From Parietaria judaica (lineage: Eukaryota; Streptophyta; Magnoliopsida; Rosales; Urticaceae), in NCBI GenBank assembly GCA_954871525.1, contig OX940861.1, positions 10,710,842 to 10,774,841 on the forward strand: a stretch of 64,000 nt of DNA, written 5' to 3'. The notes under the pieces are model-generated. The model saw only the letters and a list, made by a program, of their open reading frames with translations. It was not told the origin of the DNA and did not search any database. How positions within the stretch are numbered: the first letter of the stretch is position 1; each line of letters starts with the position of its first letter. The translations under genes and the position numbers were made by a program. Positions 2,498-49,037 of this stretch are shown here, one piece after another.

Positions 2498-2689
2498 TCT
2501 GAGATTGGGCAATTAATCATGTGTAACATAATTGCCAAAGAGCATCATAGTACATGATACTACTACATACTAACCCACTAAAACTTACAACTAAAAAAAA
2601 AAAAAACAACCCAACCAAATACCCACATCGATCCACCACCTTTTTCTAATTCAGTGTTTTTTTTCTTTTTCTAAGTTAACCAAATTCCT

Positions 2690-4086
2690 TCACTCCCAAA
2701 TGCCCACTTCCATGAACCCGTCCTCGGTGGCGCAGCCCCGGAACATCCCGGTTGTGTTGAACCCGTACGCGACCTCTCCGGTGGCCGACACCGCGATGAG
2801 GCCGGCGAACCCCTCGTCGAGCCTCTCCTTGATGACGAAGTCCACCGCCTCCTGCAGCCCCAGCCCCTTGTACTCCATCACCGCGGCCACCTCGCGCGCG
2901 AGCGTGCCGCGGATGATGGCCTCGCCCTCGCCCGTGCACGACACCCCGCACGCCTGGCTGGCGTAGGTGCCGGCGCCGATGAGCGGCGAGTCGCCGATGC
3001 GTCCCATCATCTTGTTCATCAGCCCGCCGGTGGAGGTCCCGGCGGCGCAGCGCCCCGCGGAGTCCACCACCGTGCACCCCACCGTCTCGGGCGCGTAGAC
3101 GCTGATGGGGAGGCCGTTCATGATGAGCGGGCTGTCGACGCCGGCGCTGCACGTGTCCATCCCCACGGCCGGGATCCTGTAGTCGAACTGTGGGAGCCAT
3201 AACAGCAAAGAGCCACGTCAGCGTCTCTACGCATTAAAAAGCGTTTATGAATAGCGAGATTCGGAATCGTACGTACCAAGATGGTTTTGGCCTCTTTCGC
3301 CAACTTGAGCATCCCCACATTTTCCTTTGTGATAAAGTACTCGTTGTCCACAACCTCGACACCCTGAACCAGACAACTCTGCTTAGCCAAGCTTCATGCT
3401 CAAGACATATATATAGATATATATATGCGAAAATATAATTCGATATGAGAGACGTGGGGGGTTTGTAACAGCTGTAGCGATTAACGTGGCAGTTGAAAGA
3501 GTAAACATTATTTTTCAATTATTTATTTTTAATTTTTATTTATTTACCTGGTTACGGGCAAACTCCTCTGCGCCGGAGAAGGCGAGATAGGAGTGAGGAG
3601 ACTTGTCCATGACGAGGCGGGCCAGAGAAATGGGGTTCTTCACGGTCGTGACGCCGGAGACAGCGCCGCATCGCCGCTTCTGCCCGTCCATGATGCTCGC
3701 CTCCATCTCCACCGTCCCCTTCTCCGTCAGCGCAGATCCACGGCCGGAGTTGAACACCGGGTCGGTCTCCAGCTCCCTCACCTTCATTTCACGTAAATAA
3801 AAAAATTCATAAACAAATCTCGACATGCAAGCGCCAGCCAATGTGTACGTGGTTTTCGTAAACGGTTTTGAGTTTTGACTGAGTCTAAGAAATGGAATCC
3901 GGGACGTACGACGAGCTCGACGACGTCGATGGCGGAGAGATTGGAGCGGAGAGCGGAGATTCCGAGATTGAGGCAGCGCGTGAGGAGCTGCTTGGCCTCC
4001 TCCTGGCGCTCCAATGGTAGATTGGGGTCCACCCCAGCGCCGCCGTGCACCGCTATGGCCCAACCACCCATTCTCTCGAAAGACAC
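2690..4086 (-). CDS. isoaspartyl peptidase/L-asparaginase (plant Ntn-hydrolase type), 4 exons
   Basis: Hydrolyses L-asparagine to aspartate and ammonia and cleaves isoaspartyl dipeptides; in plants it mobilises transported nitrogen in sink tissue. Family enzymes mature by autocleavage into alpha and beta subunits. Exons on the minus strand are 4086-3910, 3781-3548, 3363-3277 and 3187-2690. All introns are phase 0 with GT-AG ends, giving 331 residues, close to the 315-325 usual in plants. The N-terminal HGGAG motif is at residues 14-18. The autocleavage nucleophile is the Thr of PETVGC (about residue 201), opening the beta subunit, followed by TSTGG and [15 protein letters not shown]. The C-terminus ends in [12 protein letters not shown]. 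The start is MSFERMGGW or the internal Met six codons in. The tail and the linker before the Thr recall the K+-dependent plant subtype (Arabidopsis At3g16150), but subtype is inference. No damage is visible. Confidence 0.95.
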
Positions 4087-6680: not shown

Positions 6681-6982
6681 TTAAAAAAAAAGGGTTAATG
6701 ACGGCGAAAATAATCAAACTTTGGTCAAAGAACCCCTCGTGTACCCAAAGTCGAAAAGTGGTGGTAAAAGTACCCAAAGTACGATTTGGGGCGTTGACCA
6801 GTTTTTTCCGTCCATCCACTAACAATGCCGTCCACGTGGCCATTAGCCTCTTTCCACGTGGCACGCCACGTGGTCGTTGACTACCACGTCATCCAAACTT
6901 TGGGTATTTATATCGTAATAAACCAAAGTTTAGGTATTTTATGCCGTGATAAACCATTTTTTATATTTCTTTCGGTTGATAT

Positions 6983-7062
6983 TATAGCTTTGGTAGGACT
7001 CGAACCCATAACCTTCCCCCTCATAAAATGATAACATAACCACTAAACCACATTCACTTCAC
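6983..7062 (-). repeat. tRNA-like (SINE-head-like) module, inverted copy at 7787-7858
   Basis: Read on the minus strand it has an A-box-like TAGTGGTTATG and a B-box-like GGGTTCGAGTCC about 35 bases later. The same module, inverted, occurs at 7787-7858 on the plus strand. It lacks a full cloverleaf and is not a functional tRNA gene; a tRNA-derived fragment inside the foldback element is the best reading. Confidence 0.5.
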
Positions 7063-7134
7063 GTTATATCTTGACAAAAATAAGAATATAAATAGAAACT
7101 TATTGATAAGTGAAATAGTAATAGAAACATATGT

Positions 7135-7710
7135 ATTTTTCACATCCGGTTTGGGTTGACTTATTTGGAACGGGGTGAGTTGACTTTTTTGACCTGGGGT
7201 CAAGTTGACTTTTTTTTTTTTAGAATGGGGTCGGGTTGAATTTTTTGGACGGTGGTCAAGTTGAATTTTTCGTACCGTATTCATGTTAACTTTGTCGGTA
7301 CGGGCTCGGGTTGACTTTTTCAGAACGGGGTCGAGTTAACTTTTTGAAACAGGGTCGAGTTGAGTTTTTTTTGGAACGGGACCAGTTGGACTTTTTATTA
7401 TTAAGTGACATAGTAATAGAAACCCGATCCCAAAAATTCAACTCGATCCTGATAAAAAAAAAAATTGATTCGACCCCATATCAATAAAGTCAACTTGACC
7501 CGGTTTCTAAAAGTCAACCCGAACCTGTACCGAAAAAGTCAACTTGAATCCAGTACAAAAAATTTAACCCAACCAAAGTCTGAAAAAGTCAATCCCTGGG
7601 TCTTAAAAAGTCAACCCGACCCCGTTCTACAAAACTCAACTCGATCTTGGTCCGAAAAGGTAAACCCAACCCCGTTCCTAATAAGTCAACCCGAACCCGG
7701 TGCGAAAAGA
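7135..7710. repeat. paired inverted arrays of a roughly 30-bp degenerate unit
   Basis: From 7135 to about 7400 a unit of the form CGGGGTCGAGTTGACTTTTT is repeated with variation. From about 7430 to 7710 the same unit runs in reverse complement (AAAAAGTCAACCCGACCCCG). The arrays form the loop-proximal parts of the foldback arms. Confidence 0.75.
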
Positions 7711-8556
7711 CATATGTTTCTATTACTATGCTACTTATTAATAAGTTTCTATTTATATTCTTATTTTGATCAAGATATAACGTGAGGTGAATGTGTTTTA
7801 GTGGTTATGTTTCTTTTATATGTGGGGGTAGGTGATGGGTTCGAGTCCTACCAAAGCCATAATGTTTTAACCTTTATTTAGATAATGTCAGCAAACAAAT
7901 TTTTTTAAAATGGTTTATCGCGGCATAAATACCCAAACTTTGGTTTATCACGGCATAAATACCCAAAGTTTAGATGACATGGCGGTCAACGACCGCGTGG
8001 CGTGCCACGTGGAAAGAGGTTGACGGCACTGTTAGTGGATGGAAGGAAAAAACTGGTCAACTCCCCAAAACGTACTTTGGGTACTTTTGCCACCACTTTT
8101 TGACTTTGGGTATACGAGGGGTTCTTTGACCAAAGTTTCGGTATTTTTGCCGTCATTAACCCTTAAAAAAATGTTTGAAATAAAAAAAATATTTAATCTT
8201 GATATTGATTAGCTATCTTATTACACGATGATAAATAAGAAAAAGTCAACTACATATGTGGAGATTAGCTTAAGAATATTTTCCGATGAGATAATATATA
8301 GTCCTTGAGCCAATCTAATTTTGCAAGCTTGACTTTCTGCGACAGATATAGTCGATCGAGTCATGTACAACACTTATGGTCTATCAAAGATCAGATCTGT
8401 CAATCTCATCGCTTCTGATTCAACAAACAATTATCAATTACCTAATTGCTTAATATTTTTATATCCATCGAGAACTCGTGCAAATTGATGAGTAATAAAT
8501 TTGACATAAAAAAAAAAAAAATGGAATACGTAATCTTGAATTGGAGAGATTATTAA

Positions 8557-13648: not shown

Positions 13649-13876
13649 TCCTTTTTCTGCATAAAATATTTTATGTATCCTTCCTACTCTCAGCAGTATC
13701 TCATTTCTTACATTATTATTTCATGCAAGATTTTTTCGTTTTTAATTCCTGAAATCTATGATCTAAGATTTTTTTTAATTTGCAAGATTCGGCACTTCCC
13801 GTACTAGACAATTAGTAGTTACTAGTGGTACTACTAGTCTACTATCATTGTTTATGCTATATACATATATTTATAT

Positions 13877-14559
13877 GGGTAAAATAGCGGCGAAAGTCCC
13901 TGACTCTGCATTTTTGTTACAGTTAAGTCCCTATACCTAAAATTTTGTGGTAAAAGTCCCTACCATTAGAATCTTGTTCCACATTAGTCCTTCTGCCGTT
14001 ATAGTATCGTTAAGTGCCACATTGGCTGCATGCTTGTCATCCATGTCACCAAAAAATTAAGGCAAAAGTACAAAAAGTAAAAAATTCAAAAAAAAATCTA
14101 TACCATTAAAATATACATATCATATTAAAATTAAGCCACATTTTAAATGGATCCACCATTTTGAAATTTTTTGTCGTTTTCTTATTTCTTTGCGATTAAT
14201 TTTGTCGTTTACATATATTTTTATTTTCTTTCTTGAAATTCCATAATTAACGTTGGAATTGGAACTATAGCTTACAATGGTGGCTCCATAAAAAAATGTG
14301 GCTTAATTTCACCGCGCTACGTGAATTTAACGGTTTAGAATTTTTTAGTATTTTTTACTTTTGGTACTCTTGCCTTAATTTTTTTTGGTGACATGGATGA
14401 CATATATATAGCCTGTGTGGCACTTAACAATATTATAACCGCAAGAGGACTGATGTGCAACAAGATTCTAATGGTAGGGACTTTTGCCAACAAAATTTGA
14501 CTATAGGGACTTAGCTGCAACAAATATACAGAGTTAAGGACTTTCGCCGCTATTTTCCC
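13877..14559. mobile_element. inverted-repeat MITE (GGGTAAAATAGCGGCG termini)
   Basis: Left end GGGTAAAATAGCGGCGAAAG; the right end is the near-perfect inverse CTTTCGCCGCTATTTTCCC. The arms remain complementary for about 180 bases, through motifs such as AAGTCCCTA and CCTACCATTAGAATCTTGTT. Flanks are AT repeats, so the target duplication cannot be read. There is no coding capacity. The layout resembles family A but the sequence is different. Confidence 0.8.
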
Positions 14560-14917
14560 ATATATATATATATATATGTATATATTAATGAGTAGATTAA
14601 TTGTTAGTTGAAATCAGGTGTTTAAACTTTAAAGATACATGGGCATAAATGAACCCTGGTTATCTATAAAATAGTTTTTTATGCGGTAGCTCATTATATA
14701 TTTATCAGGGATTAAATACTCATTTTTTTTATTTATTTACGTGACTACGTTAATATTTAAATTGAATAATTGAGACACATTTTATCATAAAATTAAGTAA
14801 TTAATTTTGAATCGTGAATAACAAATAATAAAATTGTATCGCGGGAACACATAACTTTATAGCGAATTTGGTTAAATATTCTATACGACTAAAAGTACTT
14901 TAATATATAAATGATGC

Positions 14918-26700: not shown

Positions 26701-26831
26701 GTTCTGTGAATCAAGCCTCTGATCGATCGTTACTCGAGCTTTTTGTGACAGAGGATTGAATTTCTGAATCTAAATTGCATGTAACTGGAAGCGATTGTGC
26801 TGCCTCTGTTTTTGGCCATTGTGGTACGGAA

Positions 26832-27238
26832 TTAATGTGGTTAATTCACGTTTTTGTTAGATATTAGGTTGTGTTAATGTGGCTAATTCACGGTTTTTGT
26901 TAGATATTAGATTGTATTAATGTGGTTAATTCACGTTTTTGTTAAATATTAGGTTGTATTAATGTGGTTAATTCACGGATTTTGTTAGATATTAGATTGT
27001 ATTAATGTGGTTAATTCACGTTTTTTGTTAGATATTAGGTTGTATTAATGTGGTTAATTCACTTTTTTGTTAGATATTAGGTTGTATTAATGTGGTTAAT
27101 TCACGGTTTTTGTTAGATATTCGATTGTATTAATGTGGTTAATACACTTTTTGTTAGATATTAGGTTGTATTAATGTTAGATATTAGGTTGTATTGGTTG
27201 TATTAATATGGTTAAATCACTTTTATGTTAGATATAAT
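26832..27238 (+). repeat. 42-bp minisatellite, about ten units
   Basis: The unit TTAATGTGGTTAATTCACGT plus TTTTGTTAGATATTAGGTTGTA is repeated head to tail with small length changes in a T-run and some substitutions; the last units are shortened. A further two to three units lie at 27513-27615, separated by about 270 bases of unique sequence. Confidence 0.9.
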
Positions 27239-27640
27239 GAGGAGGACGCAATCAAGTGCGAAGAAGTAAACAGGTGGGGAACCGGCTAGGGAAACGGCAT
27301 CGACGGTAGTGGAAACGACGGCTAATTCGAGTTTAGAAACATCATCGAGATCGGATAATGTTCCAATTGTGGTTGTTATAAAATCGATATTTGGGTTGTA
27401 CGAGTTTTTCATCACATGATGTTCATCGTCACTATGAAAATCGATTTTTTTTCTTTCAATATGAACCTTTTATATAACTGTTAAATGGTTGGTTGATATA
27501 CAGATTTTAGATTGTATTAATGTGGTTGATTCACGTTTTTTTATATATTAGGTTGTATTAATGTGGTTAATTCACGTTTTTGTTAGTTATTAGGTTGTAT
27601 TAATGTGGTTAATACACATCGAGTGATGGGTTTGTCGAAG

Positions 27641-29570: not shown

Positions 29571-30376
29571 TGTTGGAATAAATGCATGTCCAATAATGTT
29601 CTAATAAAGACTTAGTTGTTGAAGAGTATGGGAATGAAAAGAGTCTCACATTGATTAAACACAAAGAGTTGGTGGTGTTTAAATAGAGTGGTATTCATGA
29701 CAAGCTCAACAAGTGGTTGAGCTAGTTATATGCTATGTAGAGTGTGATGCGGAGGCGGGGTGGCGAGATCATGCCACTTTATTCTCTCGCAACGCCAACC
29801 CTGCCGGTGCTGCCACCGGTGACACCAGATCCGGCTCGGGATCGGGGGTGGGGGCGTAGAGGCGCTAGTGGCGCTTTGTAAAGGCACCTGAGCACGTCGC
29901 ATCAGGGCGAGCGGTTTAGGCTCGGGTCCTCGGGCTCTTTCGCGGCGATTCTCGCCTAGCGGTAGCAATTACTTGGACCGCTAGACTTTCGCATAGCGGT
30001 AGAGGTAATGGCTACAGGGCGGTTTTCGTCGGTTACTGTCTTTTCAAAAAGGGTCGCTACCTTTAAAAATGGCAGTTACTTTTGCCTATAAAACACTCTC
30101 CATATTTCGAGTTCAAAAAATCATAAAAATATACGATATATAACTCGAAATACAGAATACCAAAAATCTCTCTCAACAATTTCCAGAAGCTGTTCTTGCC
30201 TATTTCGTGCTTCACAAACGTCTTGTGTAGTACGATTTAAGGCTTGCCGTATCATGTGGTATTCTTGCGTTGTAGACCTCTAGACGTTCTCGGAGGTGCT
30301 CGAAATACTATAAGGAAAGCGTGTTTCATGCGTGATTCAAGCCCGGAAGTCTTCGATCTCCAATAATTATCCAACA
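29571..30376 (+). repeat. 5' LTR of the copia element
   Basis: An 806-bp repeat with TGTTGG...CCAACA ends. Its last 301 bases (30076-30376) are collinear with 39256-39556, and its first 250 or so bases recur inverted at 39013-39248. The GCCTATAAAACACTC segment near 30083 is a probable TATA box for the element. Confidence 0.88.
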
Positions 30377-33032
30377 ATCTTATAGTATTTGTTTTGTTAG
30401 GCATATTGCCCTTAAACAATGTTTTATTTACCCATTGTAAAAGTTTATGACGTCACTCTTAATAAAGAAGACACTTATTATGATAATATTTTTTATAGTT
30501 CTTTATGTATAATCGAATGTTTATCCATAGTTCATAATGGAATGCAATTGTAATCTATCCATCACACAAGAGTCAATGTAAGGAACAATTGATAGATGCA
30601 ATAAATGAACTTAAATGTATCTGTGACTTAATTAAGCGGGTGGGAGCCTCTTAATTGATAAAGTCATTAATACGACTAAATGGAGAAAATCTTATTCTGG
30701 ATAGATATGTGTGTCATACCCATTAAGTGTATAAGTACGAAGTGTCTTCGTACTGGATAGGACTTGACTAAGTTCTGAAAGTGGCTCAACTAAGACCGTC
30801 GCTGACAACTTTGAACTAAGTCGTAAAAGATGATCAAATGGTAATTAATCTAAATCTTGAAGTGATCTTGAACCCTGACTGTTAGCTTGATTGAACTTTG
30901 ATTTGCTAGTTAAAGAACACAACATAACGCTGTTTCCAAAGCCGCTATATTGGGAACATGATAGTCGACAGGGAAGGGTAGCTCGATCACAGATATAGAT
31001 ATCACATAGCTTTTTACTAAGTCAAGATGATTCTCGGAATTGTCGGTCGTGAGAAGTAGTACGGGACTCATGCGCAGCTTACGTCTCCAAATCGTAAGTG
31101 AGTCGTCTACAATACCACCGATGGAATTCAGGAAGAAAAGCACTAAGGGGCTAAACGGTAAAACGCATGCTCAAGTGTGAATCATCAAGTGAAAGATTAA
31201 ACACTAGAATTTGATTATATCACTGGACACCTTAAGATATAAGGAATATATTATTCGCATCACTAAAGAGTACAACTTCGGGTTTTTAGTGGAGTAACAC
31301 CAGAGTTAACGGATTAATCCGTTGGAGCTTAAGTGATGTGGGTCCATGGTCCCCAGGATAGCTCTCTAAAGGACCAATCGTACAATTAGAATATTCGTTA
31401 TTCTAATTTATGATAGAACAATTGAAACTGAAGCTTGTGTCAAGTTTTGGAAAGTTTCAAAAAGTTGCGGCAAAAGTACCTAAAGTTTTGCCCAAAAAAA
31501 ATAGCTGATCAGAAAAACTCAAAACTGGAATAAATTGTCAACATCAATGTTGTATTAAATTTAATTCTAAGAGTTTTTTCTTCTATGATTTCATGTGAAA
31601 AAGCTACGGAAAAAAAGATATGAATTATATATCATAACAAGAGGTTATGTTAATTCATGAGAATTACTTAAAGATAAAATTAATGGGCTAGGTCCATTGG
31701 GTTTAATCTTAGCTAATTGATAGAGAGGGAATTCTACCAACCTTGGTGGTTAAGCCCATTAGGTATTTTCCTTATCATATTTTAATAAAAGATTAATTAT
31801 GTTAATTATCATGATAAACATATAAGGCAAGATTTTGAATCATGGAAATTACCAAGCTTGGTGACCAAGCAAGAGTTGGCGATTTCAAGCATGAATGAAA
31901 TCGAGTTTTATATGTTATGATAATTCAAGATACTAATTAATCATATTCAAATATGGTATTAATCTAAATTAAATAAATAAGAATTATATCATGAATATTA
32001 ATTATGCATGAATCATAAGAACTTGATTTGCAAGTTTTAAATAAAGATTTATAATGCATGAGAATTAATATTGATTGATTCATGACATTATTTAATTGAT
32101 AGGTTATTTACAAATAAGGAAAAGATTGATAAATCATGTGTCACCTAATTTGATTTAATTGAATTAATTTTTTACTAAGAATAATATTAGAAATCGCATA
32201 AACCTATTCATGGAAAGGGATTGGATTTCTTGGTATTTATTTTAATTAAAGAAAATGTATTCCCTTGATTAAAATATGATGAAATCGAATTTTACCTAAT
32301 ATGGTAGGTATTTGATTTTCATGATTCATATTTAAATCATATGAAATTAAATCTTAGGTATTTTATTCATCATAATTTCGAGCTCCTATCTAAATGGGAA
32401 GGTTGGAATTGGTTCTTGATTGATTGATTTGTAATTGACACTAATTAAGGTTGATTGATTTATCTAAAATTGGAAGTTATGCTTGCATGCCTTTTACTAT
32501 AATACAAGGCTTAAGCATCACATTCCACAAACACTCTCATATGCAAAACTCGAGTTCTCTCTCTAAGAAGTTCTCGAAATTTTCTCTCTCTCTCTAGAAA
32601 TCGGCTAGGCTAGAAGCAACGAAGTTCCATCAAACGAAGCCCACGCTTTGTGTACGAGAAAGTTCTAGAGAATATCCCGAAAGGCTTTGGGAGTTTCCTT
32701 GTCGCTTTAGAAGTCGTGCGGAAGCTCTGCTGAACCTCCCTAGGAGCATTCTCAAAGGCCGGCGGAAGCTCTGCCCAAATTCATAAAGCGCAGTGGAAGT
32801 CATCGTGAGAAATAGGTACGGCCTTATGCATTGGGTAAATAAATGCAAAACCATTTTATTGCTTTATTTATTTCCTTGACTAGAATTAATAATTACGTGT
32901 TTGAATAAATAACTAATTACTTAACCGATCGAATCTCCGTTATCTTGGTGCTCGGTTCTGGAAAAAGGAAGTAACTTCGGAAAGTGTAAAATGGGCCTTT
33001 CCGTGTAATACAAATTTTTAAAAGTTACCCCG
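30377..33032 (+). other. untranslated leader of the copia element
   Basis: 2.66 kb between the 5' LTR and gag without a long plus-strand frame. The common copia primer-binding motif complementary to initiator tRNA-Met (TGGTATCAGAGC) is not seen right after the LTR; the sequence there is ATCTTATAGTATTTG. A CT-rich patch lies at 32560-32600. Part of this leader may come from another element (TGTTAGGCATATTGCCC at 30398). Confidence 0.5.
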
Positions 33033-34978
33033 ATGGATCGAGGGCCCATCCCGAGATATGACGGAGGGGACATTAATATTTTTCCCTACATGTTTATGGC
33101 GACCGAAGCATCCATTTCAAGCATCAAAGTCATGAATCAGGATCTCGTGAAAATGGACCGTTTCGACGGTACAAACTTTACCCGATGGCAAGACAAGTTG
33201 ATCTTCCTCCTCACGGCGTTGAAGATCTACTACGTCTTGGACCCGGAGTTGCCGGCCATTCCCGAACTGGTGGACGACGACTCGGACAAAGTGAAGAAGG
33301 ATCGTGCGAAGCGCAAGGAGGACGAACTCTTGTGCCGTGGACACATACTCAATACGCTCTCCGATCGCCTCTACGATCTCTACACCGAAGTTCAATCCGC
33401 GTCGGAGATATGGAAGGCTCTCAAGTACAAATTCAAAGCCGAGGAAGAAGGTGCCAAAAAGTTCTTAATCTCGACGTATTTGGATTTCAAAATGAATGAC
33501 GGCAAGTCGATACTTTCACAAGAACACGAATTTCAAGTCATCGTCAACAAATTACGGGGTGTGAAAGTTGATAGTCCAGAAGCTTTTCAAGTTGGTGCAA
33601 TTGTTGCGAAATTGCCATCATCATCGAAAAGTTACCGGAAGAAACTTCTTCACAATTCCGAGGACTTCTCTTTGGAGCAAATCCAAAAAAATCTTCGAAT
33701 CGAGGAGGAATCGAAAGATAGAGAACGTTCCGAGGATGCCGGGACTTCGAAAGCCAACGCGGTGAGCGCGAAAGGCAAAAAGAATTTCGAAGCGAAAAAG
33801 AACTTTCTTGGTCCGAAAAAGACCAATGAGAAGTTCAAAAGTTCCGGTGCTCCCAAAGGACCAAAATCGGGCTGCTTTGTGTGCGGGAAGCCCGGCCATT
33901 ATGCTCGAGATTGTAGGAACAAGAAGGTTCCCAACAACGAGGCAAATGCAACCACGACCGAAGACAAAATCATCGCTACGGTGAGCAAGATTTTGGCTGT
34001 CAAGAGCAAGGCTAAAGGATGGTGGCACGACACTTGTGCTACCGTTCATGTCTCCTACGACAAGGCTGCCTTTAAGACTTACAACGAAGTCAATGGACAA
34101 GAGGTTTAAATGGGCAACGAAGGTCGTTCAAAGGTCGTCGGAATAGGCTTCGTTGATCTTGAATTCACTTACGGGAAGAAGGTCACTTTGACCAATGTGC
34201 TTCACGTGCCGGATATGAGTAGGAACCTTGTTAGTGGGGATCTTTTGGGAAAACCGGGAATTAAGACCGTGTATGAGTCGGGCAAATTGATTTTGACCCG
34301 CAACGGTGTGTTTGTTGGCAAGGGCTATTCTAGCGAGGGAATGGTCAAACTTTGTATTGTTGGTGATGTTATTAATGCAATTTCTTCTTCCGCGTATATG
34401 CTTGATTCCGTTTCTTTATGGCATAATAGACTAGCTCACATTTAAATTAGCACTATGAAAAGATTAATTAAATGTGGTTTGATTTCGTGCAATGTTAATG
34501 AGTTTAACAAATGTGAAATATGTGTGAAATCGAAAATGATTAAAAAACCTTTTTATAGTGTTGAGAGAAATTCCAATTTGCTAGATCTTATACATTCGGA
34601 TATATGTGAATTTAATGGTATGAAAACCCGTGGTGGTAATAGATATTTTATCACGTTCATTGATGATTGCTCTAGATTTTCATATGTTTATTTGTTAAAG
34701 AATAAAGATGAAGCTTTCAACACTTTTAAGACATATAAAGCGGAAGTGGAACACCAATTAGGAATTAAAATCAAAGTCCTTACAAGTGATAGGGGCGGAG
34801 AATATTTTCCTAACGAGTTTACTGCATTTTGCGAAGAAAATGACATTATTCATGAATGTTCCGCACCTCGTACACCGCAACAAAATGGTTTAGCCGAACG
34901 CAAAAATAGGACTTATCAAGAGATGATAAATGCTATGTTAATGAATTCGGGTTTACCATTTATTTGTGGGGTGAAGCT
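33033..34978 (+). pseudogene. copia gag-protease-integrase, broken
   Basis: One frame carries the polyprotein. The Gag domain (KMDRFDGTNFTRWQDKL onward) is followed by a CCHC zinc knuckle at codons 281-294 (CFVCGKPGHYARDC) and then the protease start WWHDTCATVHV (Asp at codon 333). Next come the GAG-pre-integrase region (SLWHNRLAH) and the integrase core with CEIC of the zinc finger, Asp in LIHSDICEF, Asp in TSDRGGEYF and Glu in QQNGLAERKNR, so the catalytic triad is present. Breaks: TAA at 34107-34109, TAA at 34443-34445, and a one-base deletion near 34961. The frame is then cut by the inner retrotransposon at 34979. Codon use is GC-richer in gag than in integrase. Confidence 0.9.
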
Positions 34979-35832
34979 TGTTAAGGTCGGATTTGGTCAA
35001 ATCCATCCTCAACACAACTCGTGTCGTTTTGCCCACAAACGACATGAAAGGGGGCGAGGAAGTTCAGCCCGAGGGGGGTATCTCCGACGAGGATAATCCC
35101 CGAGGGAGTTCAACCCCGAGGGAAATTATCTCCGACGAGGATAATATCCGAGGAAGCTCTACCGCGAGGGGGATTATTCCCGAGGAGGATCATCCCCGAG
35201 GAGGTTGGATCGCGAGGAAGCACAGCCACACAAAAGCAAGTTGCGAAGAAGTGTCCCGTCACGCTCGACGAGGGATTTCGTCATGATGATTATGCAGAGC
35301 CCGATGACAGCCGAAGGGACGTTCATTAATGAAGCTCACCTACCCAATCGATAAAAGGTGTCAGCCCCGGGGCTTGCAAGGCCCGATGACGGCTGAAGGG
35401 ACGTGCATTTAATGAAGCTCACCTACCCAAAATGACAGTCTACTCGGAAGCGACGTAAAGCAGAAATCGGCCATGCCTTCCATCGAATCACTCTAGGAGG
35501 CGAATGATTAAAAAGAGAAAAGGTGGGAAAAAGGCTAGGGGGCATAATGTAAATTGTAAACTCTATAAAAGGAGAAGAGAAGCCTCAACTATAGAGGTTC
35601 GAAGAAATAGAGGAAAAAGACCCGAAAAAGAGAGAAAGAAACCTTGTAATAGAACGGAAGAAAATCAACCCGAGGCTCATGATCCTTCATCTGTCCAGCT
35701 ATTCAACGGAAGAAAACCGAGCTCATTTCGGAAATTATAATAAAACATAGATATTCATCATTTGTTGTTATTTATTTATTATTTGATGATGTCTTTGTGA
35801 CTGGAAAAGGGTGGTGAAAAACCCCCTCTACA
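34979..35832 (+). repeat. 5' LTR of the F-box-carrying retrotransposon
   Basis: Starts TGTTAAGGTCGGATTTGG and ends ACCCCCTCTACA. It contains GAGGATAATC/CCGAGG-type short internal repeats (35080-35220) and a direct duplication around GAAGCTCACCTACCCAA (35320-35435). TCTATAAAAGGAG near 35561 is a likely TATA box for the element's transcript. Confidence 0.93.
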
Positions 35833-35852
35833 GTTTGGCGCCCACCGAGGGG
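35833..35852 (+). other. primer-binding-site-like start of the interior
   Basis: GTTTGGCGCCCACCGAGGGG directly follows the 5' LTR. TTTGGCGCCCACCG-type starts are common behind LTRs of plant Ty3/gypsy-related elements. I cannot assign the tRNA from memory with certainty. Confidence 0.6.
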
Positions 35853-35935
35853 CTTTGTTTTCTTTCTAACTCACAGCCAGGAATTTGGAGGAGCATGACG
35901 TCATTAAACGACACCATCGTCAGCAGCGTGCTCGA

Positions 35936-35977
35936 GGTGGTGACTGAGCGCGCGAGGTGGTGACTGAGCGCGCGAAA
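35936..35977 (+). repeat. about 20-bp tandem duplication in the element leader
   Basis: GAGGTGGTGACTGAGCGCGC occurs twice head to tail (about 35935 and 35955). Confidence 0.8.
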
Positions 35978-36373
35978 ACAGCGAGCATAACCCAAGGAGG
36001 CAACTCAAGGGCAGGAGTGACGTAAGAAGGGGAGACGTACGGACTCCTTGCGCTTAAGAGAGGTAGACGTATAGACGGTTAATCGGGAAAAGAAGCGCAC
36101 GCGTATCAAGGAGTCGGGGTGACTCCCGAAGCGTCATGAAGTGACAGCAAAACAGGGAATACGAAGGGACGCGTGTGAAACAATCGGCGGCTATAAAATG
36201 GGAAGTTTGGAGAGGACCAAGGAGAACAAGTCTGCGGAAGTAAAAACGAATTCGGTTAACTCTCAGATAAGTACAAATCTTTCCACCCAGAGAATAAAAG
36301 TCCCTTTCTTACTCCGAAACCAGTTTTTGTTAGTATTTTCACGTTACAGGTCGAGAAAGCATACAAAAAAGAA

Positions 36374-37255
36374 ATGGCGCTCATGGAAGAAGTTGGCCAA
36401 AGCTACATAGACGAGTCAGAGAGGATAGTGGATGAAGGTTGGGAATGGCCCAAGGAAGACACCACGGAAAGCCTGCGGGACCAGGAGGAGCTAAGAGTAC
36501 CGGGTGAACCACACCCCGCGTTGGAACTGGTCCTGCCATATCTTATGCCCGAGGAGCTCCTCGCGGTGGAGATGGTATGCACGTCATTGCGCGACGAGGT
36601 TCGGGGAAACAGCCTTCTGTGGCGCAACATCAGCATCTACAACCCGTTGAGCGAGCGGATGGAAGACGACAATCTCTTGAGGCTGGCAAGGAGATCTCAA
36701 GGGAAGATGGAGACTTTGACGCTGGATGGGTGCTTCGAGGTCACCAACGCCGCGTTGAAGACAATTCTGCAGGACAACCCGACGCTCGTAAAACTATGCC
36801 TGCCTCGCTGCCACCGAATCACCTTAGACGACGTGGTCAACAACCTGCCCACCATCAAGCACGGGATAAAATTCTTAAGGGTCAACGGGCTATTTCCCAG
36901 GGCCAAACTCGAAGACCTTCCCCCGCTGCTCACGGCGGGAAACCCAACCGATTACCCCGAGCAGCAGGCGCCCGCCCCACGCGGTCGACTGCTCGACATA
37001 GAGTTCTGCCGGAGGTGCGACAGAAACGTTTTTATCTACGAGAAGAGCACGAAGGTGCGAGCGGGAGACTCCGTCCGCCCGCCGTGTTTTGGCCGACGCC
37101 GAGGTAGTGGTGCTTGCGGTTTTTGCAGGTCATGCTACATCCTCGGTACCACGTGGTACACCCACCTCTGCACGGAATGTAACTTCGGGCGCACCAGCTT
37201 AGACTCCCTGGAGAAGGTCGTAACGACGGCCTGCTCGATCGTCGAGGAAGAGTGA
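36374..37255 (+). CDS. F-box/LRR protein, SKIP14-like, inside an LTR retrotransposon
   Basis: An intact 293-codon frame between the LTRs. Residues 47-90 form an F-box (PALELVLPYLMPEELLAVE, then VCTSLRDEV and LLWRNI), the part that binds SKP1/ASK in SCF ubiquitin ligases. Residues 113-165 are two leucine-rich (AMN1-like) repeats: LTLDGCFEVTNAALKTIL and LCLPRCHRITLDDVV. Residues 209-270 are Cys-rich (C212, C215, C238, C248, C251, C254, C266, C269), likely metal-binding. This order, including the DIEFCRRC start of the tail, recalls plant SKIP14 F-box proteins, which are usually longer (about 450 residues); here the N-terminus is short. The frame has no intron, fitting capture of a spliced transcript, but the parent's intron structure is not visible here. 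The start ATG follows an AAAAAAGAA stretch. Substrate unknown. Expression would come from the LTR promoter. It is unlike any gag or pol. Confidence 0.82.
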   Translation: MALMEEVGQSYIDESERIVDEGWEWPKEDTTESLRDQEELRVPGEPHPALELVLPYLMPEELLAVEMVCTSLRDEVRGNSLLWRNISIYNPLSERMEDDNLLRLARRSQGKMETLTLDGCFEVTNAALKTILQDNPTLVKLCLPRCHRITLDDVVNNLPTIKHGIKFLRVNGLFPRAKLEDLPPLLTAGNPTDYPEQQAPAPRGRLLDIEFCRRCDRNVFIYEKSTKVRAGDSVRPPCFGRRRGSGACGFCRSCYILGTTWYTHLCTECNFGRTSLDSLEKVVTTACSIVEEE

Positions 37256-37510
37256 GCCCGGAGTAAAGCTCGTACGCTGCTTGGTGCGAGGAGAGGATCG
37301 AAGTGGCCACCCCTTTGTAACCATTAGTAGATTATATTAGGTGGTAGAAGTTTGTTTGGCTTTGTTTTTAATACCGATATGTGTATGTTTTTCTTTTGTT
37401 CATTAATGAGCGAGCAAATTTATAAAGTTGGCAAAGGGTGTATGCAACTCTGCTCGGGGATAGTACCATTTAAAAAAAATATATCTATATATATACATAT
37501 ATATATACAT

Positions 37511-37785
37511 CATATATACGGCTAAGGGTGCCGAGCAAGCCCGGTCCGGCAAAACATGTCGAGATCATATATACGGCTAAGGGTGCCGAGCAAGCCCGGT
37601 CCGGCAAAACATGTCGAGATCATATACACGGCTAAGGGTGCCGAGCAAGCCCGGTCCGGCAAAACATGTCGAGATCATATGTACGGCTAAGGGTGCCGAG
37701 CAAACCCGGTCCGGCAAAACAGGCCGAGACCCTATATACGGCTAAGGGTGCCGAGCAAGCCCGGTCCGGCTAGAGAGCCGAGAAT
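37511..37785 (+). repeat. 55-bp tandem array, five units, downstream of the F-box ORF
   Basis: Unit starts CATATATACGGCTAAGGGTG and continues CCGAGCAAGCCCGGTCCGGC plus AAAACATGTCGAGAT. Copies start at 37511, 37566, 37621, 37676 and 37731; the last is partly degenerate. GCCGAGCAAGCCCGGTCCGGC is GC-rich and partly self-complementary, so each unit could form a small hairpin. Confidence 0.93.
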
Positions 37786-37798
37786 AATATAAAGAGAA

Positions 37799-37804
<6 letters not shown>

Positions 37805-37838
<34 letters not shown>
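37805..37838. repeat. (AT)n microsatellite within the retrotransposon
   Basis: An AT dinucleotide run of about 17 units between the 55-bp array and the polypurine tract. Confidence 0.9.
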
Positions 37839-37841
<3 letters not shown>

Positions 37842-38026
37842 TAAACAGGCAAAAGGAGTAAGCGGAAACAACCAAGGGGGACGCAAAGGATTCTTAAAAA
37901 AAAAAATTACAATATAGCCACGCGAGGAGCCGAAGAAGCAATCATCGACTGGAAGGATAACCAATGCCGGTTAGAATCGATCTCCGAAATAGTTATACTT
38001 TATTTTACCAAGTGTACACACTTGAT

Positions 38027-38042
38027 AAAATGGGGGACTAAC
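38027..38042 (+). other. polypurine tract of the F-box-carrying retrotransposon
   Basis: AAAATGGGGGACTAAC lies directly before the 3' LTR, the expected place for plus-strand priming of reverse transcription. The LTR begins TGTTAAGG at 38043. Confidence 0.8.
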
Positions 38043-38896
38043 TGTTAAGGTCGGATTTGTTCAAATCCATCCTCAACACAACTCTTGTCATTTTGCCCAC
38101 AAACGACATGAAAGGGGGCGAGGAAGTTCAGCCCGAGGGGGGTATCCCCGACGAGGATAATCCCCGAGGGAGTTCAACCCCGAGGGAAATTATCTCCGAC
38201 GAGGATAATCTCCGAGGAAGCTCTACCGCGAGGGGGATTATTCCCGAGGAGGATCATCCCCGAGGAGGTTGGATCGCGAGGAAGCACAGCCACACAAAAG
38301 CAAGTTGCGAAGAAGTGTCCCGTCACGCTCGACGAGGGATTTCGTCATGATGATTATGCAGAGTCCGATGACAGCCGAAGGAACGTGCATTAATGAAGCT
38401 CACCTACCCAGTCGATAAAAGGTGTCAGCGCCGGGGCTTGCAAGGCCCGATGACGGCTGAAGGGACGTGCATTTAATGAAGCTCACCTACCCAAAATGAC
38501 AGTCTACTCGGAAGCGACGTAAAGCAGAAATCCGCCATGCCTTCCATCGAATCACTCTGGGAGGCGAATGATTAAAATGGGAAAAGGCGGGAAAAAGGCT
38601 AGGGGGCATAATGTAAATTGTAAACTCTATAAAAGGAGAAGAGAAGCCTCAACTATAGAGGTTCGAAGAAATAGAGGAAAAAGACCCGAAAAAGAGAGAA
38701 AGAAACCTTGTAATAGAACGGAAGAAAATCAACACGAGGCTCATGATCCTTCATCTGTCCAGCTATTCAACGGAAGAAAACCGAGCTCATTTCGGAAATT
38801 ATAATAAAACTTAGATATTCATCATTTGTTGTTATTTATTTATTATTTGATGATGTCTTTGTGACTGGAAAATGGTGGTGAAAAACCCCCTCTACA
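38043..38896 (+). repeat. 3' LTR of the F-box-carrying retrotransposon
   Basis: Same length as the 5' LTR (854 bp) with only substitutions and no length change. By eye about 18 differences, spread evenly. Ends CCCCCTCTACA at 38896, followed by the AAGCT duplication. Confidence 0.93.
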
Positions 38897-38898
38897 AA

Positions 38899-39012
38899 GC
38901 TTTGCTATCCGATTGTCATATTGTTAACCATATTCCTTTAAAGAAAACCCGTATTTCTCCGTATGAAATATGGAAAGGCCGAGCGCCGAATATCGGGTAT
39001 TTCCGTGTATGG
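38899..39012 (+). pseudogene. copia integrase, continuation after the nested insertion
   Basis: Resumes the integrase C-terminal part: SDCHIVNHIPLKKTRISPYE followed by IWKGRAPNIGYF and RVW. It is in the frame reached after the one-base deletion near 34961. Homology stops at 39012, where inverted LTR sequence starts, so reverse transcriptase and RNase H are deleted. Confidence 0.88.
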
Positions 39013-39556
39013 AGCCGGTGTCGCCGGTGGCATTGCGAGAGAACAAAGTGGCATGATCTCGCGACCCCGCCTCCGCATCACACTCCACATAGCATATCAC
39101 TAGCTCAACCACTTGTTGAGCTTGTCATGAATACCACTCTATTTAAACACCACCAACTCTTTGTGTTTAATCAATGTGGGACTCTTTTCATTCTCACACT
39201 CTTCAACAACTAAGTCTTTATTAGAACAATATTGGACATGCATTTATTGATGCATTTACTTTTGCCTATAAAACACTCTCCATATTTCGAGTTTAAAAAA
39301 TCATAACAATATACGATATAGAACTCGAAATACAGAATACCAAAAATCTCTCTCAACAATTTCCAGAAGCTGTTCTTGCCTATTTCGTGCTTCACAAACG
39401 TCTTGTGTAGTACGATTTAAGGCTTGCCGTATCATGTGGTATTCTTGCGTTGTAGACCTCTAGACGTTCTCGGAGGTGCTCGAAATACTATAAGGAAAGC
39501 GTGTTTCATGCGTGATTCAAGCCCGGAAGTCTTCGATCTCCAATAATTATCCAACA
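39013..39556 (+). repeat. rearranged 3' LTR of the copia element
   Basis: 39013-39248 is the reverse complement of the first 250 or so bases of the 5' LTR (with an internal gap of about 18 bases). 39256-39556 is the last 301 bases of the LTR in normal direction. The middle (about LTR positions 260-505) is missing. The normal CCAACA end and the TATTT duplication are kept. Confidence 0.88.
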
Positions 39557-42788: not shown

Positions 42789-43654
42789 TGTTGTTAGGAC
42801 TTACCCAAAATCCGAAGAGCGACTACGTACTCCGAAGAAGTTTGCATCCACGTAACGCAAAGTTAAAAGATAATAGAGAAGTAGCTAACTCACTCTAAAA
42901 TTTTCTACTAATGTGAGGCCGCTAACAACTATTCGAATTATATTCAGCTAGACATCAACAAGACAACAAATCTAATGACTCTGTATAGACACGCATTTTT
43001 TATAATCTAAAATAAATTAAAAAGTTAGATGACTGAGTCTATAACCTTCAAACGAGGCTTAACTTGCCTTTTATAGAGTTTACATTATCCCCCTGGTGTC
43101 TTTCCCGCCCTTTTCTCTTTTTAATCATTCGCTTCCCAGAGTGATTTGAGGGAAGCATGGTTAATCCGTGCTTTACGTCACTTCCGAGCAGACTGTCATT
43201 ATGGGTAGGTGAGCTTCATTAAATGCGCATCCCGTCAGCCGTCATTCGGTCCTGCAAGCTTCGTCGATGATGCCTCTCATCGAGTGGGTAGGTGGGCTTC
43301 ATTAAATGCGCATCCCGTCAGCCGTCATTCGGTCCTGCAAGCTTCGTCGCTGATGCCTCTCATCGAGTGGGTAGGTGGGCTTCATTAAATGCGCATCCCG
43401 TCAATAGTCATTCGACTCTGCACAATTCATCATGACGAAGTTCCTCGTCGAGCGTGATGGGACATTTCATCGCAGTCTGCCTTCACGCTAGTTAGACCTC
43501 CTCGCGGTTAAACCTCCTCGGAGATAATCCTCCTCGAGGATGTACCCGTTTGACCCTCGGGCAATGAACTTCCTCGCCCTCACCCATGTCATTTATGGGA
43601 CAAAACGACACGAGTTGTGTTGAGGATGGATTTGACCAAATCCGACCTACAACA
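42789..43654 (-). mobile_element. diverged solo LTR of the F-box retrotransposon family
   Basis: On the minus strand the start (TGTAGGTCGGATTTGGTCAA), the CATGAATTGTGCAG/GACGGCTGAC stretch, the TCACTTCCGAGCAGACTGTC stretch (plus sense) and the CTCTATAAAAGGCA TATA region follow the LTR at 34979 in order. It has an 83-bp unit present three times (plus-strand starts near 43203, 43286 and 43369), expanding what is a two-copy duplication in the other LTR. Boundaries TGTTGTTAGG (42789) and CTACAACA (43654) are tentative and I see no clean target duplication. There is no F-box interior. Confidence 0.75.
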
Positions 43655-46927: not shown

Positions 46928-47412
46928 CAGGTTCAAAATGCCGTTTTTTTTCGATAAATCGTTTGTTGTTTTTAATGATTATCGAATTCGGTGGATTTTT
47001 TAGAATTATCGATGGAAAACTAATAAAATTGTAACTTATCGTTACTGACAGTTTTCGAGGATTATCGACAGATTATCGACATTTATCGAGGATTATCGAT
47101 GAAAAATCACTAAAATAGAATACATTTACCGAGTATACATATGTAAATAAAATAGTCTTAATCTCACATGTGTAAATACTCAAATAAAATATGTCATACT
47201 CAAATAAAATCATGTCATACTAAATAGTTTTTTTTTTCATTGAAGGTACTTTTGCCAAAAATTGTTGAAAAGTTCAAAAAAATTCAAAAAGTACCCTTTT
47301 TTTTTTTAAAGTGTTTTTACAGATAATCGATTGGTATTGAATATTTGCCGATGACTAGTGGCAAGACGGATAATCGACGATTATCAAAGATAAGAGGAAA
47401 ATTCGAACCTTG
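46928..47412. mobile_element. second hAT MITE of the same family
   Basis: Starts CAGGTTCAAAATGCCG and ends AAATTCGAACCTTG; same ATTATCGA-rich subterminal repeats as the copy at 45528. Flanks share ATAGGC (46921-46926 and 47414-47419), an imperfect 8-bp duplication. Confidence 0.75.
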
Positions 47413-47724
47413 GATAGGCGAACGAAATATTATACCAAAAATATCCAAAACTTAAATATTTTTTGTATTTTTTTTTTCTCGTAAGAAAGAGACTACGGAG
47501 AGAAAGTCATTACTCAGTGAGAGAGAGCCAAGGATCCGTGCTCCAAATTTTCCAAACCCAACCCATGACAAGGACGATTCCATGGAAATTACATTTAGGA
47601 CCGTTGGAAAATGCAGAGATGGTAGGCGATCGGATTTACTAAGGTTTTTGTTTTTATATATATAGATATATATATTTGTTATTCATAATTAATAAAATAA
47701 AAGAAAAAAAAGACCGTTGGGTTC

Positions 47725-49037
47725 TTAGTAGTGAAAGCGAGAGTCGATGAAATCTGGGTTTGTCGTTTCGGTCCTTGCCGTTGTCGTTTGGGCTCTGATC
47801 CTCTTGAACAGAGGCTCCGGCGACGACGACACCGACAGCGATCCGACGGCCCACGAGTCGTTCGAGCTGTCTGAGCTAAATGACGCGTCGACAACGCCGT
47901 TTGGGCTGCTCGGGACCGAGCCGAACATACCGACAACTTTACGCTTCTTGGATTGTAGGCTCGCATTTGCCAATTCCCATATCAGCTTAAGACAGTCATC
48001 GGATTTTTCCTGCACAAAAACAAGACAATATACTTAATTAAGCTAATTTTAGATTAATATGATTTTTTAAGAATTTAAATTCTAACTATACCTTATCGAT
48101 TCCCAGAATACCCAGAAGCTGTTCTTGGTATTGGCTATGAAGACGAGGCTCTATACTATCCACCACATGCAGCATTGTGGCTGTTGCCACTGTGGATGGG
48201 AGAAAAGCCATCATTCTTGAATCTGCACGTATACACCAAAACGACATTACGTTTTACATATATATATATATATATATTTACGAGTTTTTTCAGAGAAGTA
48301 CGGACCTTGAAGGAGTGAGAGAACGATGGTCTCGCATCGTCTGAGAAACTCCCAACAGAGATGGTCCTTCAAGCCGAGCCTCCTCACGAGGTAATCCAGA
48401 AACGACATTGGAGTGACGAGGTTCATTCTCCACTCGAGCGTTGAGAGAACCAAAAGCTCCATTCTCTTTATCGTTCTCGCTTCGAACAAGTACTTGCTCT
48501 CTTCCACCTGAATCATTCATTGAAGAAAAAGATCTCATTTTTATGGCGTATTAAAGAGACCCAGAAGAAATTAATAGCTGAAATGTTCGATCTCCGAACA
48601 CCCACTTGGAAATCTAGCAGGAGCGGGACATGGGTCTCCTCCACTTTGGCGGCGATTGAGAGACACGCGACGGCCGCGAGATGGGTCATCCACGGCTTGT
48701 CCCTCTCGAAGCGAAAGCTGACGAGAAACCGGTCAAGATAGTCAACGGCGAGAGTCGCCGTGAGGGCGGAGAAAGAGTAGAAAGCGACGGTCCTCAGCGT
48801 CCACGCCACGGCCTCTCTGCGAGCCTCGCCCAGCGACGCGTCGTTTAGGAGGGCCTCCGAGAGAGGATTCTCTCTCTCCTTCGATAGCAGAGAGCTCAGC
48901 TCGTGGTCTTCCCAGCTCAGGTCCAGCTCCAGCAGAGTCAACGGAAACGGGCTCGGCTTGGTCAACGGGGCCTCCTCTTCCTCTCGGTCCTCCCAGTGCT
49001 CTTCCGAGCAGTACAGAGCGTCCAAGAGGAAAGCCAT
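47725..49037 (-). CDS. CYCD3: D-type cyclin (CYCD3-like), 4 exons
   Basis: Regulatory subunit of CDKA that phosphorylates retinoblastoma-related protein and drives G1-S in response to cytokinin and sugar. Exons on the minus strand: 49037-48606, 48507-48306, 48222-48092 and 48009-47725, all GT-AG, giving 349 residues (Arabidopsis CYCD3 proteins are about 360-376). The Rb-binding LxCxE motif is LYCSE at residues 8-12. The cyclin box N lobe contains AVAWTLRTVAFYSFSALTAT, AVDYLDRFL and CLSIAAKVEET. The C lobe starts in exon 2 (KRMELLVLSTLEWRMNLVTP) and continues to LLGILGIDK. The C-terminus is Ser-rich with FKRIRAQ. Exon-intron positions match known CYCD3 genes as far as I recall. No damage seen. 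Confidence 0.94.

What the first reader, a model, noticed from the sequence alone, without database searches (positions are those of the whole stretch)
34979..38896. LTR retrotransposon without gag-pol carries an intact F-box (SKIP14-like) gene
Seen: matched 854-bp LTRs, AAGCT duplications, primer-binding-like start, polypurine tract, and one long frame with an F-box, leucine-rich repeats and a Cys-rich tail. No retroviral protein. Known: retrotransposons sometimes capture host transcripts. Inference: a ubiquitin-ligase adaptor gene became the sole cargo of a mobile non-autonomous family. An intact frame in an element whose LTRs differ at about 2% suggests the cargo is either very recent or kept by selection.
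Basis: partly seen in the sequence, partly recalled or inferred. Interest (0 to 1): 0.88.

Follow-up and report, generated by a model that had tools for sequence, protein, structure and literature searches.

The report
Jumping-DNA family carrying an F-box gene
This is one copy of a large family of plant jumping elements that lack their own copying machinery and instead carry a long-ago captured plant gene for a protein-disposal adaptor, which evolution appears to have kept intact, so a mobile element may be steering the host's protein-degradation system.

Summary
Confirmed and extended. Window 34979-38896 is an LTR retrotransposon: two 854-bp LTRs (18 differences), AAGCT duplications, PBS-like and PPT-like sites, no gag-pol, one intact 293-aa F-box/LRR/Cys-rich ORF (36374-37255). 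It is one of many: in the window's own 539-Mb genome the ORF matched 134 places (the best 134 of 897 candidates; 107 without a stop in the matched stretch). All 48 ORF loci read share the leader, 47 a long LTR match. dN/dS between subfamilies is 0.25-0.51; for four pairs simulated, 1 of 1800 neutral runs was as low, so the protein has probably been selected. The host SKIP14 gene has an intron where the ORF has none and only 31-37% identity: an old capture of a SKIP14-type transcript. A gag-pol element (L054) shares LTRs (96-97%), PBS, PPT and 3' repeats and is the likely helper; the F-box block stands in place of gag-pol. Longer members also carry antisense ORFs, one with a weak Transposase_28 match, as in Retand elements: the F-box gene is the sole cargo of the window copy, not of the family. 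Function (SCF adaptor favouring the element, perhaps against silencing) is inferred.

The parts
34974..34978 (.). target-site duplication AAGCT, left copy
34979..35832 (+). 5' LTR, 854 bp; TATAAA at 35564, AATAAA at 35739
35833..35913 (+). PBS-like site and first 81 nt of the leader, 90% identical to the gag-pol element L054
35914..36373 (+). rest of the leader, no match in L054; at least 300 nt of the leader are present in all 48 ORF loci read
36374..37255 (+). F-box/LRR/Cys-rich ORF, 293 aa, SKIP14-type, without the SKIP14 intron
37256..37508 (+). 3' untranslated stretch without counterpart in L054, apart from a 20-nt match
37509..37783 (+). five 55-bp tandem repeats, 90-96% to those of L054
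37784..38042 (+). 3' tail with PPT-like site, 80% to L054
38043..38896 (+). 3' LTR, 854 bp, 18 differences from the 5' LTR
38897..38901 (.). target-site duplication AAGCT, right copy

Best explanation
The feature is a young (LTR K 0.021), short, non-autonomous copy of a large Retand-like Ty3/gypsy family in a plant that is most likely a member of Rosales. In the ancestor of the family the gag-pol block, from shortly after the PBS to the 3' tandem repeats, was replaced by a copy, without the intron, of a SKIP14-type F-box/LRR gene (shown: shared termini, missing gag-pol, missing intron; inferred: the replacement itself, and capture through a spliced transcript, for example by template switching in a particle). 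Element RNA made from the LTR is packaged, reverse-transcribed and integrated by proteins of gag-pol elements that share LTR, PBS and PPT, such as L054 (inferred from the shared sites). The F-box protein has been kept by purifying selection while subfamilies diverged (supported by dN/dS). Most likely it joins host SKP1/Cullin1 and recruits, through its LRR and Cys-rich tail, a host protein whose loss favours the element, with a silencing or immunity factor as first guess (inferred, not tested).
For: Multi-copy family: 134 long ORF matches, the best of 897 candidates, 27 of 134 with in-frame stops in the matched stretch (rows counted by hand); 47 of 48 distinct loci read have an LTR match of 150 nt or more and 48 of 48 at least 300 nt of leader; 33 F-box loci had 5' flanks long enough to compare and no pair was similar. 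Intact frames in three subfamilies, 18 of 38 loci. dN/dS 0.25-0.42 in 11 pairs, dS up to 0.65; for four pairs x three mutation spectra x 150 runs, 1 of 1800 neutral runs was as low as observed. Fixed differences A+B against C 14 N:17 S, against a neutral N:S of 1.9-3.1. Consensus of host SKIP14 kept at 69% of the slowest and 19% of the fastest quarter of core columns. Host SKIP14 with a 244-nt GT-AG intron at the K|L junction that the ORF reads through; host SKIP28 exon 2 appears to begin at the same place (my reading). L054: LTRs 96-97%, PBS and leader 81 nt 90%, repeats 90-96%, tail 80% to the window element; gag, RT, RNase H and integrase domains above cut-off; no F-box match. Among 54 loci plus the window, gag matched 1 and pol 2. 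AlphaFold model: F-box helices and LRR strands/helices, pLDDT block means 67-95 over residues 41-190.
Against: The MK-like table is not significant (p 0.16) and fixed A|B differences are 7N:2S; mean dN/dS between A and B is 0.51 and that pair was not simulated. Single-pair binomial tests range from 9e-5 to 0.2. Singletons are also below the neutral N:S (1.48 against 1.9-3.1), which could mean that my neutral expectation is off or that using only open frames biases it. The copies scored are the best matches, so their share of open frames is biased upwards. Selection on a diffusible protein of an element without gag-pol is hard to explain without cis preference. No transcript or protein evidence. 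The Cys-rich tail is poorly modelled (pLDDT under 50; whole model mean 63, pTM 0.55) and shortened against SKIP14. L054 has gag, protease and pol in three separate open segments, so whether this copy works is unknown. Donor uncertain: grouping of the retro clade with SKIP28 not rejected (AU 0.48), although the exon-2 tree puts it on the SKIP14 side.
Confidence: 0.78

Rival explanations
1. Selection keeps an open frame rather than the F-box function: a long translated ORF protects element RNA from decay or silencing or marks it for packaging, and the F-box sequence is passive cargo.
For: The element lacks gag-pol and would need a reason for a cis benefit; many of the scored copies have the same open-frame length, e.g. 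371 aa.
Against: dN/dS 0.25-0.42 in 11 pairs means that amino-acid content is constrained, not only openness; conserved F-box/LRR columns are kept.
Confidence: 0.15
2. A host-domesticated F-box gene that has spread by retroposition; selection is for a host function, and the LTRs are the vehicle.
For: The family is related to a host gene family; an ordinary host SKIP14 exists beside it.
Against: None of the 48 ORF loci read lacks the leader, and 47 have a long LTR match; the flanks compared are all different and the dated F-box copies are young (LTR K 0.006-0.021 in three); the constraint is seen between element subfamilies.
Confidence: 0.08
3. A recent chance capture of the host SKIP14 transcript with no function, intact only because it is young.
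For: The window copy is young (K 0.021); such captures are known.
Against: 31-37% identity to the host SKIP14, while 30 angiosperm SKIP14s share 53-90% with each other; sister-to-host rejected (AU p 0.014); simulated neutral decay to 40% identity leaves 8.5 stops on average and 0 of 300 runs stop-free; several diverged subfamilies with intact frames.
Confidence: 0.03

Closest known systems
Retand lineage of plant Ty3/gypsy elements (passages of PMC11963269 seen)
   Same: long 3' region with tandem repeats and antisense ORFs, TRP28 domain; some members are non-autonomous
   Different: here a sense F-box gene stands in place of gag-pol; the paper's text has 0 occurrences of 'F-box' (listing)
Dasheng/RIRE2-type non-autonomous/autonomous pairs of rice (recalled; only the listing seen)
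   Same: non-autonomous family sharing LTR and priming sites with a gag-pol family
   Different: recalled as having no coding capacity; here a host-derived protein under constraint is carried
Bs1 of maize and other LTR elements with captured host genes (passages of PMC13317346; part 1 of 3 of PMC7264820)
   Same: host gene sequence carried inside an LTR element; PMC13317346 cites about 1,235 such genes in rice, most under negative selection
   Different: Bs1 carries gene fragments; [quoted passage not shown] here at least 134 ORF places with an old, conserved gene
Orchid Gypsy elements with a captured AlkB demethylase (abstract and section 12 of PMC9289625)
   Same: host-derived regulatory enzyme fixed in a gypsy lineage
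   Different: that screen of 121 genomes used RT as marker and section 12 names no F-box; carriers without RT would be missed
Polerovirus P0 F-box silencing suppressors (abstracts in the listing)
   Same: parasite-encoded F-box protein acting with host SKP1
   Different: sequences not compared here; function of the element's protein untested
VANC anti-silencing proteins of VANDAL transposons (abstracts in the listing)
   Same: element-encoded accessory protein that favours the element
   Different: sequence-specific anti-silencing proteins of other transposons, no F-box known to me (recalled)

Membership tests
non-autonomous LTR retrotransposon | two LTRs, target-site duplication, PBS-like and PPT-like sites | tested here: met
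   the tRNA matching the PBS was not identified
non-autonomous LTR retrotransposon | no gag-pol in the element | tested here: met
   for the window copy; L011, L024 and L013+L053 also without a gag or pol match; 3' halves of many other copies not read
non-autonomous LTR retrotransposon | shares termini with a gag-pol element that could act in trans | tested here: met
   L054; trans action itself not testable
Retand lineage (Ty3/gypsy Tat) | placement of the reverse transcriptase in the Retand clade | not tested
   element has no RT; RT found in L054 but no tree with reference RTs was made
Retand lineage (Ty3/gypsy Tat) | antisense ORF with TRP28/Transposase_28 between coding region and 3' LTR | tested here: inconclusive
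   L053 antisense 164-aa ORF, PF04195 E 9.5e-4, 19.8 bits against a cut-off of 26.2; absent from the window copy
Retand lineage (Ty3/gypsy Tat) | tandem repeat arrays before the 3' LTR (in about half of elements, PMC11963269) | tested here: met
   55-bp repeats 37509-37783, shared with L054
captured host gene in an LTR element | host homologue with intron, element copy without | tested here: met
   244-nt intron in host SKIP14 at the K|L junction; ORF continuous there
captured host gene in an LTR element | recognisable recent donor in the same genome | tested here: not met
   31-37% to host SKIP14; sister-to-host AU p 0.014
SKIP14 F-box protein | F-box, LRR and Cys-rich module in this order | tested here: met
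   F-box match slightly below the Pfam cut-off, Cys tail shortened
SKIP14 F-box protein | conserved N-terminus with DILDLLPSDPFGM | tested here: not met
   absent from the 293-aa ORF; hence SKIP14-derived, not a SKIP14 orthologue
SKIP28 F-box protein | groups with SKIP28 proteins | tested here: inconclusive
   placement with Prunus SKIP28 rejected (AU 0.009), grouping of the retro clade with all SKIP28 not rejected (0.48), exon-2 tree on the SKIP14 side
SCF F-box adaptor | binds SKP1 and recruits a substrate | not testable with these tools
   F-box helices predicted, no binding data

The most novel reading that the evidence does not exclude
A mobile-element family has traded its replication genes for its own ubiquitin-ligase adaptor: the F-box protein, selected over the divergence of many subfamilies, makes the host SCF complex destroy a host restriction factor (for example an RNA-silencing component), while gag-pol comes from partner elements, giving a two-part mobile system with a transposon-encoded counter-defence.
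Probability: 0.35. Interest if true: 0.92.

Novelty: new variant of a known kind. Interest (0 to 1): 0.78.

Why it matters
Host genes captured by LTR elements are known, and many in rice are reported to be under negative selection (PMC13317346, passages), but transduced genes are described as sitting in one or a few copies (PMC7264820, part 1). Here a host-derived ubiquitin-ligase adaptor appears to be kept by selection in a non-autonomous family with at least 134 ORF places in one plant genome. That poses a testable question: what does an element gain from a protein that acts on host protein turnover, and how is a diffusible protein selected in an element that cannot copy itself? Screens that use reverse transcriptase as marker would not see such carriers.

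Tried and rejected
Rejected: recent capture of the host SKIP14 (divergence, AU test, neutral decay). Rejected: separate insertion of the ORF into an LTR element (same order of LTR, leader and ORF in 48 loci; a few, such as L033, have further insertions). Rejected: high GC3 as a sign of foreign origin (ORF 0.72, but host exons in the window 0.78 and 0.95). Led nowhere: viral contigs with the protein, an LTR pattern and the PBS pattern (no relative); tRNA and Rfam scans of the window (none); the protein search of 5.8 billion sequences with the ORF gave 1 hit at E 0.01, a Macleaya SKIP14-like protein; a profile search limited to short proteins showed no closer relative in the 120 of 167 hits listed; Pfam on antisense ORFs gave nothing above cut-off. 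Fold search never ran. A gag copy count never ran. The flank test used wrong orientations for plus-strand loci and was replaced. Paper searches with an F-box or SKIP14 term: 25 of 54 papers listed; 0 found; 1; 15 of 68; 1; 10 of 326; no listed title or abstract start reports an F-box gene as cargo of an LTR element; open-access library only.
Full report
What is there. It sits inside a Copia element bracketed by 305-bp direct repeats at 30072-30376 and 39252-39556, probably its LTRs. The LTR has TATAAA at 35564 and AATAAA at 35739. LTR divergence K 0.021 corresponds to about 0.8-1.5 million years at two substitution rates that I recalled.

The protein. Pfam gives an F-box-like match of E 4e-5, 0.6 bits below its cut-off; the best PDB relative by sequence is FBXL2 (E 4e-8, residues 82-150, the LRR part). 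In an alignment with 30 angiosperm SKIP14 proteins the ORF is 36-42% identical to each, while they are 53-90% identical to each other in the same columns. It lacks the SKIP14 N-terminus and has a shortened Cys-rich tail, but core columns are kept in the pattern of SKIP14: consensus at 69% of the slowest quarter of columns and 19% of the fastest, 19 of 26 host-invariant columns (part of the decline is expected, since the consensus is not the ancestor at fast columns). The AlphaFold model (mean pLDDT 63, pTM 0.55) shows F-box helices (48-78) and an LRR part (85-186), with block means of 67-95 over residues 41-190; residues 1-37 and most of those after 193 are below 50.

It is a family. The window's own genome (538,666,778 bases, 87 contigs) was searched with window 36000-37500: 40 of 511 candidates were scored, with matches at about 95-99%, 89-93% and 79-83% identity. 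The ORF protein gave 149 matches from 134 scored of 897 candidates; 134 are long matches, 27 of them with an in-frame stop in the matched stretch (my count of rows). These are the best-scoring candidates, so the share of open frames is biased upwards, and a match may end before a frameshift. I read 48 distinct ORF loci: 38 from the DNA search (a 39th fetched locus has no ORF) and ten from the SKIP14 search. All 48 have at least 300 nt of the leader and 47 at least 150 nt of the LTR in one match. 33 F-box loci had 5' flanks long enough to compare, and no pair is similar, so these insertions are independent. Of the 38 loci, 18 keep the frame from ATG to stop, spread over three subfamilies. LTR pairs on one strand suggest that six members are about 9.5-10.3 kb long (my pairing of rows); the window copy, at 3.9 kb, is a short form.

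Selection. Nei-Gojobori dN/dS on 19 open copies is 0.31 between subfamilies A and C, 0.33 between B and C, 0.51 between A and B, and 0.39-0.49 within. With more divergent copies, 11 chosen pairs gave 0.25-0.42 with dS up to 0.65. Neutral simulations for four of these pairs, with transition and CpG bias, had medians of 0.58-0.82, and 1 of 1800 runs was as low as observed. Fixed differences between A+B and C are 14 N to 17 S, against a neutral N:S of 1.9-3.1. Against this: the MK-like comparison is not significant (p 0.16), fixed A|B differences are 7 N to 2 S, singletons (86 N to 58 S) are also below the neutral expectation, and single-pair binomial tests range from 9e-5 to 0.2. Only copies with open frames entered these counts. 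I conclude that purifying selection probably acted on the protein in the element lineage, with moderate certainty about its strength.

Origin. The best match of a SKIP14 query in the genome is one two-exon gene (873 and 513 nt, 244-nt GT-AG intron); the 87 other places listed are much weaker, and the ten of them that I read are all elements. The ORF reads through the intron site. Host SKIP28 exon 2 appears to start at the same place (my reading). 25 element ORFs are 31-37% identical to the host SKIP14 in local alignments, and the leader from 35914, the ORF and the stretch after it have no blastn match in the host locus at E 0.1. The ORFs form one clade with a long stem (1.7 substitutions per site). 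A sister relation to the host gene or a position within Rosales SKIP14 is rejected (AU 0.014 each), but SKIP14 and SKIP28 as closest group cannot be told apart; placement with Prunus SKIP28 alone was rejected (0.009), and the exon-2 tree favours SKIP14. So the gene came, I infer, from a spliced SKIP14-type transcript, either long ago or with great acceleration. Among 240 held proteins the host SKIP14 is most similar to Parasponia (65.5%), Ziziphus and Cannabis ones, so the plant is most likely a member of Rosales (order of Parasponia checked; inference).

Helper and architecture. L054 is an 8.5-kb element with LTRs 96-97% identical to the window LTRs, nearly the same PBS and first 81 nt of leader (90%), the same 55-bp repeats (90-96%) and 3' tail (80%). 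It has Retrotrans_gag, an aspartyl protease match below cut-off, RT, RNase H and integrase and no F-box match. Its coding region lies in three open segments, so this copy may be defective. Thus the F-box block, at most 35914-37508 of the window, stands where gag-pol stands in L054. Longer F-box members have antisense open frames between the repeats and the 3' LTR; one has a weak Transposase_28 match (E 9.5e-4, below cut-off), the domain that PMC11963269 (passages seen) reports, as TRP28, in 97% of Retand clusters. Among 54 loci and the window, gag matched only L054 and pol only L054 and a fragment next to the element of L038 on the other strand; the 3' halves of many long copies were not read.

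How it probably works. LTR-driven RNA is translated into the F-box protein and also serves as genome for particles made by gag-pol elements. The protein should bind SKP1 through its F-box and a substrate through LRR and tail. Plant viruses use F-box proteins against silencing (abstracts) and transposons encode anti-silencing proteins (abstracts); by analogy a silencing factor is the first candidate substrate. None of these functional steps was tested. A cis benefit is needed to explain why an element without gag-pol keeps a diffusible protein; that is the open question.

Novelty. Six searches of the paper library with an F-box or SKIP14 term showed, in the listed titles and abstract starts, no report of an F-box gene as cargo of an LTR element; three of these lists were capped. 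A survey of extra domains in 121 angiosperm genomes used RT as marker, and its section 12 names no F-box. I rate this a new variant of a known kind: gene-carrying, non-autonomous LTR elements.

Noticed in passing
window 43054-43653 (-): Fragment of a related LTR (about 78-83% identical) that ends soon after the TATA box and has a doubled 83-bp unit; no internal region seen beside it.
   Followed up: partly
window 30072-39556 (+): Copia element with 305-bp direct repeats (98.7%), gag and integrase frames, interrupted by the F-box element.
   Followed up: partly
window 29577-29797 and 39028-39248: A 221-bp inverted repeat (96%) near the repeats of the Copia element, unexplained.
   Followed up: no
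window 26767-27620: Array of 42-43-bp tandem repeats.
   Followed up: no
window 6690-8164 and 13859-14577: Long self-inverted repeats (77% over 1.5 kb and 0.7 kb), perhaps foldback elements.
   Followed up: no
window 2676-4063 (-) and about 47000-49037 (-): Exons that I read as an isoaspartyl peptidase-like and a cyclin D3-like gene (names recalled), with GC3 of 0.95 and 0.78 in the parts measured, in a window of 36% GC.
   Followed up: partly
L038 (C19:18169600-18175000): A protease/pol fragment (85-90% to L054) lies directly next to an F-box element on the opposite strand.
   Followed up: no
L053:382-3565 (-): Antisense open segments of 164, 694 and 294 aa (weak Transposase_28 match in the first) in a long F-box element; partner L054 has only about 0.7 kb between pol and 3' LTR.
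   Followed up: partly
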